Shown piece by piece: positions 19,402 through 22,207 of a DNA stretch of 50,694 nt. Source of the DNA: Planctomycetaceae bacterium (GTDB lineage: Bacteria > Planctomycetota > Planctomycetia > Planctomycetales > Planctomycetaceae); contig JAGQQE010000005.1 in the NCBI GenBank assembly GCA_020426345.1, positions 1 through 50,694 on the forward strand, written 5' to 3'. How positions within the stretch are numbered: position 1 is the first letter of the stretch; the number at the start of each line of letters is the position of its first letter. Both the position numbers and the translations under genes were made by a program. Under the pieces are notes generated by a model. That model saw nothing but the letters and a program-made list of their open reading frames with translations, ran no database searches and had not been told where the DNA came from.

Positions 19402-19854
19402 TCAAGTGCTCCAAGGGTGACGTTTGATCACCATTTGAGGACGAAATTGTGAACCTGAACGAAGATTACCGGTCGTTGGAGTTGAGTCAAGAAAATCCCA
19501 CGATCAGCAGCCTCTAACGACACTTTATCCCATTGTCGTTCGCCAACACGCCCTTAGTTTGGCAAACCGTCCGAAGATTGCTCTACATCCATCGCAGCGG
19601 CGGCACCGGCAATTCCAGCCGATTCGATTGGGGGAGTCAGATGGGCTGTTTTCCGACCAACAATGCAGCTTAAGCCTATCCAAACCGGAGGAACCCTTCA
19701 TTCGACGGAACCGGCAGAATTCGCCGTTTTGCGCAGATTCAGAGAATCCCTGCACTTGTAACCACGTGGCGGCATCATTCTCGGCTTGTGAGCCTGCTCG
19801 ATGCGCAAATAGATTTCTTTGTCCCATATGTACCTCTGCAGGGTTCCTCCTCAA
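19402..19854. other. Divergent intergenic region
   Basis: About 450 bp between the minus-strand coiled-coil gene and the plus-strand lipoprotein gene. The spacer shows an imperfect inverted repeat (GCCAA near 19543, TTGGC near 19559), no convincing small gene and no RNA gene. The lipoprotein start is uncertain, so the true spacer may be longer or shorter. Confidence 0.35.
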
Positions 19855-21558
19855 ATGTCCGCTCACCGTCACATCCATCCGCTGCGCGAACGCTGCCAAT
19901 CGGCTGTCGAACGGCTTTTGGTGTGCACAAAAGTCGAGTTTAATCGTGTCATCGCGGCGCGAAACAGTGGCTGCCTGTTGCTCGTTGGAGTCTTGTTCTT
20001 GCTGGCACCGGGATGTGCCACCAATAAGACTGATTTCGCGTCTATATCTACTGCACGGCCCCACTCCGAACCTGTCCATTTCGAAGGTGGTAGTGTTGTT
20101 GTTCGATCTCAGGACCAACCGCTGCAGGGAGGTTGGTCCGGTCTGATCCCTCAGAACACCGAACGGAATGTCAACGGGTCTCATCAGGACTTCGGATTTG
20201 TTAGTCCCGGGCACTCCTTCGCAACTCAGGTCCGACTCAGAACCCCGCGTTTTGCTCCACCCTCAAATGCAGACTCCAATCTCGATCGGATCCCCGAGAC
20301 CAGCGACACATCAGGAACTCAGCCGCCGGGGGCAGAATTTCAGTCGGGGCTCGGGCAGCCTGGTCCGTTGCCGTCAATCAATCAATCGGTCGGAAACACG
20401 ATTCCAGCGAATGTCGCTCCTCAAAGTGCGTCTGTTCCGGACCCAGCTGTTGTTCGTGAACCAACAATCATGGAGCGGTTTCGGGAGCTGTACCAGCCCC
20501 GACGCGCGGAAATGGCGGCAGTTGTCCGCGATACCGAAGAAACAACATCGGCACTCATCGCCCGCCCGTTTCGGCGTCTGCAGAATCCGTGGGGATTACT
20601 GCTGCCAAGAGAAGAACAAGCTGCAGAACGGCAGAACAGTTCTTCAACTGCGTTGATTGAGGATTCGGCTGACTCTGCAGGCAGTGGTTCGCCACCAGAA
20701 TCGAATATGGATGATCAATCCGCAACAGGTGCCGCGCTGGAATCAGAGAGAGTGACTGAACAGTCATCGGAATATTTGATTGCAGTTTTGATTGAGCAGT
20801 ATCAGGCTCGCATTCAGGCATGGCCGAGGGACGCAGACGGCGTGCCCGCGAACCCGGAGGAATGGCGAAGAGTGCAAACCGATCTTCGCTTGCTGAATTT
20901 GATTTCGGGAGACAGCGCTGAGGCAGTCGCTGCCATCGAAGGCTTACCTGCCGCTGAGCGAGAGTTCTGGCAGTCCATTCTGATGGCAATGACTGTTTGC
21001 CGTCAGAGTCGCGAAAGTTCCGCAGAAGATTTCACTGCTGAGTGGGAATTCACTCCGGCCGTGACTTCCAGCCATCAACTGGATGCAAGGAGTCAGGAAG
21101 AAACTCGCTATGATATGACGGCTCAGCAGCTTCGAGCCGCGATCCGACACCTTCAGTCTATGTCCAGACTCACGATTCGCCGGGCCGCTTTTTGCAGTCG
21201 AATCCAAAGCTTCGGAACCTTTGAAACGTTTCCAACCACTGATTTCAATTCAGGGCAGCCTGTACTGGTTTATGCTGAGATCGATAATTTTCGAACAGAA
21301 CGAAGTAAAGAGGGGACGTACGATTCTCGATTCTCCGCGCAGATTGATATCCTGCGGAACGACGACCCCGGACCGGTTGAAAGTATTCCTGTCGAAGGCA
21401 TTATTGACCAGTCCACGAGTCCTCGAACTGACTATTACCACAGCTACGAACTGACGATTCCGCAACTCGCCCCCGGACGCTATACGCTGCAGCTGACCGT
21501 CCGGGATGAAATCGCCAGACAGGAAGCCACATCAATTCTTCCATTTCACGTGCGTTGA
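19855..21558 (+). CDS. Predicted lipoprotein, planctomycete-type, unknown function
   Basis: A hydrophobic stretch LLLVGVLFLLAPGC gives a lipobox with the cysteine (at 20014-20016) as the lipidation site. The true start is uncertain. TTG 19819, ATG 19828 and ATG 19855 leave an unusually long N-terminal extension before the signal; TTG 19918 or GTG 19921 would give a classical signal of about 31 residues. A long S/P/Q-rich disordered linker follows, then helical and strand-rich segments; the end (SYELTIPQLAPGRYTLQLTVRDE) resembles an immunoglobulin-like strand pair. It probably faces the periplasm. It is the first gene of a tight run with the small coiled-coil, TSR3-like and sulfatase genes. 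Confidence 0.7.
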   Translation: MSAHRHIHPLRERCQSAVERLLVCTKVEFNRVIAARNSGCLLLVGVLFLLAPGCATNKTDFASISTARPHSEPVHFEGGSVVVRSQDQPLQGGWSGLIPQNTERNVNGSHQDFGFVSPGHSFATQVRLRTPRFAPPSNADSNLDRIPETSDTSGTQPPGAEFQSGLGQPGPLPSINQSVGNTIPANVAPQSASVPDPAVVREPTIMERFRELYQPRRAEMAAVVRDTEETTSALIARPFRRLQNPWGLLLPREEQAAERQNSSSTALIEDSADSAGSGSPPESNMDDQSATGAALESERVTEQSSEYLIAVLIEQYQARIQAWPRDADGVPANPEEWRRVQTDLRLLNLISGDSAEAVAAIEGLPAAEREFWQSILMAMTVCRQSRESSAEDFTAEWEFTPAVTSSHQLDARSQEETRYDMTAQQLRAAIRHLQSMSRLTIRRAAFCSRIQSFGTFETFPTTDFNSGQPVLVYAEIDNFRTERSKEGTYDSRFSAQIDILRNDDPGPVESIPVEGIIDQSTSPRTDYYHSYELTIPQLAPGRYTLQLTVRDEIARQEATSILPFHVR

Positions 21559-21587: not shown

Positions 21588-21764
21588 ATGAGCCTGAACA
21601 AGAAGCAAAAGAAGCAGATTGACGCCCTGAAGAACAAAATCAATGGGTTACAGCAGCTCCTGAGAGCTGCCAGAAATCAGCCGGACGATCCAGCGGAAAT
21701 CCCAAGGCTCGAAAAACAAATTGCGGATCTGCAGACAGAGATTGAGAAGATCAAGGGCGAATGA
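21588..21764 (+). CDS. Small coiled-coil protein, 58 residues
   Basis: Starts at ATG 21588; a longer form from ATG 21555 would add a hydrophobic tail and is less likely. The product is lysine/glutamine-rich and almost wholly helical ([20 protein letters not shown] ... [18 protein letters not shown]), with a clear heptad pattern in each half and a short PDDPAE turn between. Its stop overlaps the TSR3-like start by 4 bp (ATGA), so translation is probably coupled. It might be an antiparallel coiled-coil partner or regulator of a neighbour, but no function can be assigned. Confidence 0.75.
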
Positions 21765-22207
21765 GTCTTCCAACGGTTATTGTCGTCCATCCACGAGAAC
21801 GTCGAGCCAAATGCTCAGTCGAACCCCTGAGGGGGCGTCCTGATTTTGAGTTTTTCACGTTCCCGCATCCCGTGACAACGGACGTATCCGATTACATTCA
21901 GCTTGGGATCGGTGGTCCCGAGTTGTCCGCTGCGGATGCAGAATCCGGGCTGTTTTTGCTGGATGGAACGTGGCGTCTGGCGGCTCGAATGGCCCCTTTC
22001 TTTGAGCACATTCCAGTTCGTTCTCTTCCTCCGATCAGAACCGCTTATCCCCGAAAGTCTTCGGTCTATGATGACCCTGATGCCGGACTTGCCACCATAG
22101 AGGCGTTGTATGCTGCGTTACGAATACTCGGGCGCGATACGAAAGGTCTCCTTGACCAGTACTACTGGAAAGATGAATTTCTACGGCTGAATGGCTGGGA
22201 AGAATAG
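21761..22207 (+). CDS. TSR3-like (DTW/TSR3 superfamily) protein, possible aminocarboxypropyltransferase
   Basis: A 148-residue protein. The C-terminal half matches the TSR3/DUF367 pattern: LFLLDGTW (like the DCSW motif), then [13 protein letters not shown] (like LPxLxAxNP), [15 protein letters not shown] (EALxAALxILG) and finally [11 protein letters not shown] (like WGxxFLxLN). The N-terminus [10 protein letters not shown] resembles the CTGKKL motif. Eukaryotic and archaeal TSR3 transfers the 3-amino-3-carboxypropyl group of SAM to a uridine in small-subunit rRNA helix 31. Bacterial relatives of the DTW superfamily, such as TapT, modify tRNA. Which RNA this enzyme acts on is inference. Translationally coupled to the small protein upstream; the sulfatase starts 2 bp later. 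Confidence 0.75.

What the first reader, a model, noticed from the sequence alone, without database searches (positions are those of the whole stretch)
21761..22207. TSR3-like protein in a bacterium
Motifs match TSR3, known to add the aminocarboxypropyl group to a uridine of small-subunit rRNA helix 31 in eukaryotes and archaea. A bacterial member raises the possibility that planctomycete 16S rRNA carries this modification near E. coli position 966, or that the enzyme acts on tRNA like TapT of the DTW group.
Basis: partly seen in the sequence, partly recalled or inferred. Interest (0 to 1): 0.6.

Follow-up and report, generated by a model that had tools for sequence, protein, structure and literature searches.

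The report
Planctomycete TSR3-related acp-transferase, substrate unknown
This small planctomycete protein very probably transfers the same chemical group from SAM to RNA as the eukaryotic and archaeal ribosome enzyme TSR3, but the ribosomal RNA base that TSR3 modifies does not exist in these bacteria, so it must work on another RNA site, most likely in tRNA.

Summary
The 148-aa gene at 21761-22207 is real, strongly conserved and confidently modelled (pLDDT 91.7). Its closest solved structure is archaeal TSR3 (5apg, Z 14.1), then E. coli TapT (9kyt, Z 10.4). It keeps the D-x-T-W motif and glutamate helix of the TDD (TSR3/DTW) superfamily. It is neither TSR3 nor DTW/TapT: in a tree it sits in its own supported clade, lacks TapT's zinc motif and YRxRRE segment, and falls under the Pfam thresholds for both. 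The clade fits the bacterial 'pc1599' family named by Burroughs and Aravind in 2014 (PMC4275035); no later paper in the library uses that name. The proposed 16S position-966 target is contradicted: all 25 planctomycete genomes with both the protein and an exact-pattern 16S helix-31 match have G966, and the window's genome encodes an RsmD-like enzyme for that G. It is the only TDD member found in its genome, whose tRNAs offer U47 in 17 of 21 five-base variable loops. Best explanation: a SAM-dependent RNA acp-transferase, probably acting on tRNA; chemistry likely, substrate inferred. Conserved neighbours (a 58-aa coiled-coil ORF overlapping by ATGA; a Methyltransf_32 gene in relatives) also occur in genomes without it, so they identify no partner.

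The parts
21761..22207 (+). TDD-superfamily (pc1599-type) protein, 148 aa, predicted SAM-dependent RNA aminocarboxypropyl (acp) transferase
21788..21817 (+). N-terminal motif H10-P-R-E-R-R-A-K-C-S19; S/T19 corresponds by position to SAM-binding T19 of V. distributa Tsr3 (numbering from PMC7026641; residue correspondence inferred)
   Evidence: H10, E13, K17, C18 invariant in 44 members
21962..21973 (+). D68-G-T-W71, the D-x-S/T-W motif: predicted catalytic base D68 and SAM-binding W71
   Evidence: D68 and W71 invariant in 44 members; aligned to D70/W73 of 5apg; roles from PMC7026641
22040..22054 (+). T94-A-Y-P-R98, family signature in place of TSR3's A-N-P and DTW's Y-R-I-R-R-E-P
   Evidence: invariant in 44 members, nearly so in distant members
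22085..22105 (+). G109-L-A-T-I-E-A115, conserved glutamate helix of the TDD superfamily
21588..21764 (+). 58-aa coiled-coil ORF directly upstream, stop overlaps the TDD start (ATGA, 21761-21764); conserved planctomycete protein, probably co-transcribed, functional link weak

Best explanation
The gene encodes a minimal (148 aa) SPOUT-fold enzyme of the TDD superfamily, of the pc1599 type. It would bind SAM in the TSR3-like way, with W71 holding the cofactor so that the 3-amino-3-carboxypropyl group rather than the methyl group faces the substrate and D68 deprotonating N3 of a uridine, and so make acp3U in an RNA. It does not act at 16S position 966. The most likely substrate is tRNA, at U47 next to G46 or a D-loop U20/20a/20b, where it would stabilise the tRNA core as TapT does in E. 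coli. Shown here: gene, conservation, fold, motif, separate clade, absence of U966 in relatives, absence of another TDD gene in the held assembly, presence of U47. Inferred: the chemistry, the RNA class and the position.
For: D-x-T-W and E-A motifs invariant or nearly so across the phylum. AlphaFold model pLDDT 91.7; best PDB matches are the two TSR3 acp-transferases and TapT, above other SPOUT proteins (Z 14.1, 11.4, 10.4 against 9.0 or less). The family profile finds only TSR3 in the PDB by sequence (5apg, 3e-6). All TDD members tested in the literature that I read (Tsr3, TapT, DTWD1, DTWD2) are acp-transferases on uridine or m1-pseudouridine (PMC7026641, PMC6895100). G966 in all 25 protein-positive genomes with an exact-pattern helix-31 match, and an RsmD-like gene in the own genome, 116.6 bits against a cut-off of 117.5. 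Only TDD gene in the held genome. tRNAs with U47 in 17 of 21 five-base variable loops, G46U47 in 16.
Against: No biochemical data for any member. U47 is common in bacterial tRNAs whether modified or not, so its presence is only permissive. The protein lacks the N-terminal zinc domain that TapT needs for tRNA acp transfer (PMC7026641). The window protein is slightly acidic (pI 5.4). No enrichment of tRNA genes near family members: 4 tRNAs in 1.02 Mb. By fold it is closer to the rRNA enzyme TSR3 than to TapT. About two thirds of sampled planctomycete genomes lack it, so the modification would be dispensable.
Confidence: 0.5

Rival explanations
1. It is an acp-transferase for a ribosomal RNA uridine other than 16S 966 (another 16S site or 23S), keeping TSR3's ribosomal role but with a shifted target.
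For: TSR3 is the closest solved structure by Z and identity (27%, aligned from residue 1 to 148, while TapT aligns only to residue 139). C-terminal W...F...N segment shared with TSR3. No zinc tRNA-recognition domain. In the tree TSR3 and this clade lie together on one side of a 99/94 branch opposite DTW, though unrooted and with two TSR3 sequences.
Against: No candidate uridine identified. In protein-positive genomes bases 966-968 are GCA and position 965 is U in only the two f62 genomes. No ribosomal gene neighbourhood was seen. No bacterial rRNA acp3U was found in the literature searched.
Confidence: 0.25
2. It modifies 16S rRNA at position 966 as TSR3 does.
For: Homology to TSR3 only.
Against: Position 966 is G in every planctomycete site found, and an RsmD-like gene is present in all 15 genomes tested. 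The own genome's 16S is not in the held data, so this rests on relatives, including G004 and G313 of the same family.
Confidence: 0.02
3. It acts on a non-RNA substrate, or is a SAM-binding protein with other activity. The RNase role once predicted for this superfamily (PMC4275035) belongs here.
For: No substrate known. SFM1, a SPOUT-fold protein methyltransferase, is the next structural neighbour (Z 9.0).
Against: The D and W residues of the acp-transferases are kept throughout the family. All tested superfamily members modify RNA (PMC7026641, PMC6895100).
Confidence: 0.1
4. It works as a two-component enzyme with the 58-aa coiled-coil protein encoded upstream, which would supply RNA binding in place of TapT's zinc domain.
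For: ORFs overlap by ATGA in the window. The small ORF is directly upstream in 42 of 81 loci, 36 of 60 clusters at 88% identity. It is basic (pI 9.45).
Against: The small protein occurs in genomes without the TDD gene (G011, G013, G020, G028, G033, G037 and others) and lies elsewhere in some genomes that have both (G006, G009, G016, G250). It was not found near the distant members examined.
Confidence: 0.1

Closest known systems
pc1599 family of the TDD superfamily (Burroughs and Aravind 2014, PMC4275035)
   Same: Bacterial, mainly planctomycete/verrucomicrobial/chlamydial; recovered from TSR3 searches; clusters apart from TSR3 and DTW families. The window clade has the same properties as far as tested.
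TSR3 (archaeal/eukaryotic 16S/18S rRNA acp-transferase; 5apg, 5ap8)
   Same: SPOUT fold, D-x-S-W motif, conserved glutamate helix, short domain without zinc finger, C-terminal W...F...N.
   Different: T-A-Y-P-R instead of A-N-P; separate clade; target base U966 absent from 16S of related hosts; below curated cut-offs.
TapT / DTWD2 (bacterial tRNA U47 acp-transferase; 9kyt)
   Same: SPOUT fold, L-D-G-T-W motif, glutamate helix.
   Different: No CxxC...CxC zinc domain, no YRxRRE segment, 148 instead of 232 aa, separate clade, lower structural score (Z 10.4, 18% identity).

Membership tests
TDD superfamily (TSR3/DTW-type acp-transferases) | D/E-x-S/T-W motif | tested here: met
   D68-G-T-W71; D and W invariant in 44 members
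TDD superfamily (TSR3/DTW-type acp-transferases) | SPOUT-type fold matching TSR3/TapT | tested here: met
   pLDDT 91.7; 5apg Z 14.1, 9kyt Z 10.4
TDD superfamily (TSR3/DTW-type acp-transferases) | Conserved glutamate in the penultimate helix | tested here: met
   E114 invariant in 44 members and kept in the distant ones aligned
TDD superfamily (TSR3/DTW-type acp-transferases) | SAM-dependent acp transfer to RNA | not testable with these tools
   needs biochemistry
pc1599 family | Bacterial clade distinct from TSR3 and DTW families | tested here: met
   clade support 97/87 against DTW 99/94 and TSR3 99/98 (only two TSR3 sequences, 103 columns)
pc1599 family | Distribution mainly in planctomycetes/verrucomicrobia/chlamydiae | tested here: inconclusive
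   widespread in Planctomycetota; other phyla were not sampled systematically
pc1599 family | Direct homology to Protochlamydia pc1599 or P. brasiliensis gi 325108807 | not tested
   sequences not available in the held collections
TSR3 | Grouping inside the archaeal/eukaryotic TSR3 clade; curated TSR3 score | tested here: not met
   separate clade; Ribo_biogen_C 27.8 of 29.9 bits, PRK02287 36.5 of 152
TSR3 | Host small-subunit rRNA has U at position 966 | tested here: not met
   G966 in 25 protein-positive genomes; window genome's own 16S not held
DTW / TapT | N-terminal CxxC...CxC zinc motif | tested here: not met
   one cysteine in the window protein; most members have one or two; the motif is present in planctomycete DTW proteins and TapT
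DTW / TapT | Grouping with TapT/DTW; Pfam DTW gathering score | tested here: not met
   33.3 against 33.7 bits, while true planctomycete DTW proteins score 91-167 bits; separate clade

The most novel reading that the evidence does not exclude
The pc1599-type enzymes place acp3U at an RNA site not known to be acp-modified in any organism (a 16S/23S position other than 966, or a new tRNA position), using a TSR3-like single domain that needs no zinc tRNA-binding module.
Probability: 0.35. Interest if true: 0.6.

Novelty: new member of a known kind. Interest (0 to 1): 0.38.

Why it matters
It turns a passing 2014 family definition into a concrete test: an acp-transferase relative closest in fold to TSR3, in bacteria whose 16S rRNA lacks TSR3's target base. 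Finding the substrate would show how this superfamily moved between rRNA and tRNA, and which acp modification is older.

Tried and rejected
16S U966 as target: rejected, G966 everywhere found. DTW/TapT membership: rejected by tree, motif and score. Functional operon with the coiled-coil ORF or with the divergent Methyltransf_32 gene: both are found in genomes without the TDD gene, so synteny looks like shared ancestry within Planctomycetaceae. tRNA-gene neighbourhood: 4 tRNAs in 1.02 Mb, no sign of association. Fetching more TSR3 sequences for the tree from plasmids and viral contigs: no match, so TSR3 is represented by two PDB fragments. Searching plasmids for the window protein: no match. 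Own 16S: not found by Rfam model or by pattern with 3 mismatches; complete genomes of the same family also gave none, so it is probably missing from the held data rather than biologically absent. The 2016 Tsr3 structure paper is not held, so RNA-binding basic residues were not compared.

Full report
Observation. The ORF at 21761-22207 (+) encodes 148 aa. It matches Pfam DTW (5.1e-8), Ribo_biogen_C (2.2e-6) and the NCBIfam DUF367/TSR3 model (3.8e-9), each below the curated cut-off; every member of a 44-sequence alignment of its relatives gives the DTW and DUF367 matches. No other TDD-type gene was found in the held genome, 6.83 Mb and 95% complete. Relatives at 72-77% identity exist in three genomes of its genus. 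Nearest named records include 'Fuerstiella sp.' and 'Planctomyces sp.' MAGs, so the host is a Fuerstiella-like planctomycete. Synonymous change is saturated while non-synonymous change is low.

Distribution. In 294 planctomycete genomes of at least 90% completeness, 96 matched the family profile; three of these match only weakly, through their DTW proteins, leaving 93. True DTW/TapT-type proteins (91 bits or more) are a different set, and 27 genomes carry both. If both act on tRNA they must use different positions, as proposed for the three Vibrio cholerae paralogues in PMC6895100. The family is patchy: present in most members of the window's family and in several deeper families, absent from others with complete genomes.

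Classification. In a tree of 59 sequences over the C-terminal half the window protein and its relatives form one clade (97/87), DTW proteins with E. coli TapT another (99/94) and TSR3 a third (99/98). There were only 103 columns and two TSR3 sequences and the tree is unrooted, so the tree shows separateness, not the branching order. Profile comparison is stronger to TSR3 (E 3.2e-9) than to DTW (2.2e-7), but these profiles are small. TapT and planctomycete DTW proteins carry the CxxC...CxC zinc motif and a YRxRRE-type segment; this family has neither, with T-A-Y-P-R instead. These features fit the pc1599 family of PMC4275035. That family was described as mainly planctomycete/verrucomicrobial/chlamydial, and the superfamily was then predicted to be an RNase; no other paper in the library names pc1599.

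Structure and mechanism. The AlphaFold model is confident (mean pLDDT 91.7, pTM 0.87). Best PDB matches are TSR3 5apg (Z 14.1, 140 residues, 27% identity), TSR3 5ap8 (Z 11.4) and E. coli TapT (Z 10.4, 18%), above all other SPOUT proteins (Z 9.0 or less). D68 and W71 align with D70 and W73 of V. distributa Tsr3, the proposed catalytic base and the SAM-positioning tryptophan (PMC7026641). A74 and S19 fall at the positions of A76 and T19, which contact SAM there; this correspondence is my inference from motif spacing. SAM-dependent acp transfer to N3 of a uridine is therefore the best-supported chemistry, though untested.

Substrate. In archaea and eukaryotes position 966 is acp3U or m1acp3-pseudouridine; in bacteria it is m2G966 (PMC6259748; PMC7026641). 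A helix-31 pattern with four free bases at 965-968 matched 124 of 294 planctomycete genomes; position 966 is G in every match. Among them 25 carry this protein (G004, G098, G138, G144, G146, G151, G161, G162, G165, G170, G171, G175, G187, G191, G203, G211, G215, G233, G241, G245, G259, G266, G270, G292, G313), all with G966-C967-A968. An RsmD-like gene is present in all 15 genomes tested, the window's own included, just under the curated cut-off there. The own 16S is not in the held data. The TSR3 site is thus very probably unavailable. The genome's tRNAs show U47 in 17 of 21 five-base variable loops and G46U47 in 16, the context TapT uses; this is permissive only. tRNA is preferred because the tested bacterial TDD proteins act there and rRNA acp3U in bacteria did not turn up in the papers searched; this is inference.

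Surroundings. A 58-aa coiled-coil ORF (21588-21764) overlaps the start by ATGA. It is conserved and lies directly upstream in 42 of 81 loci. In 28 loci a divergent Methyltransf_32 gene lies upstream. Both also occur in genomes without the TDD gene and apart from it, so neither is a strong functional link. Downstream genes (sulfatase, 3-keto-disaccharide hydrolase domain protein) are ordinary planctomycete genes. Base composition of the gene equals that of the window (53% against 54% G+C).

Verdict. A real member of a known but uncharacterised bacterial family. The TSR3 comparison is right for fold and probable chemistry, wrong for the target base.

Noticed in passing
window 21588-21764; loci L027-L106 upstream of the TDD gene: Conserved planctomycete 58-60 aa coiled-coil hairpin protein ([10 protein letters not shown]...QPDDP...LExEIA) with no Pfam family above cut-off; also present in genomes without the TDD gene.
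   Followed up: partly
G000:C773:5968-7155; relatives e.g. L036, L048: Class I methyltransferase with a Methyltransf_32 domain, divergently oriented upstream of the TDD gene in many relatives but elsewhere in the window genome, where the matched stretch contains two in-frame TGA codons.
   Followed up: partly
L172-L190 (planctomycete DTW loci), L026: Planctomycetes also carry true DTW/TapT-type proteins with a zinc motif; several sit in long reading frames, and the one read beyond the DTW domain (L026) has a sizeable C-terminal extension, perhaps the inactive exonuclease fusion noted in PMC4275035.
   Followed up: no
16S helix 31 in genomes of families f3, f5, f7: Several families of the window's class have U at 16S position 968 (GGCU) and lack this TDD gene, while carriers of the gene with a readable site have A968.
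   Followed up: no
L083 (JANQRS010000069.1): Contig labelled Calditrichia encodes a 59% identical family member; probably a mislabelled planctomycete MAG or a transfer.
   Followed up: no
window 19819-21558: 579-codon frame just upstream holding a lipoprotein-like signal (LAPGCATNK) with no Pfam match above cut-off.
   Followed up: no
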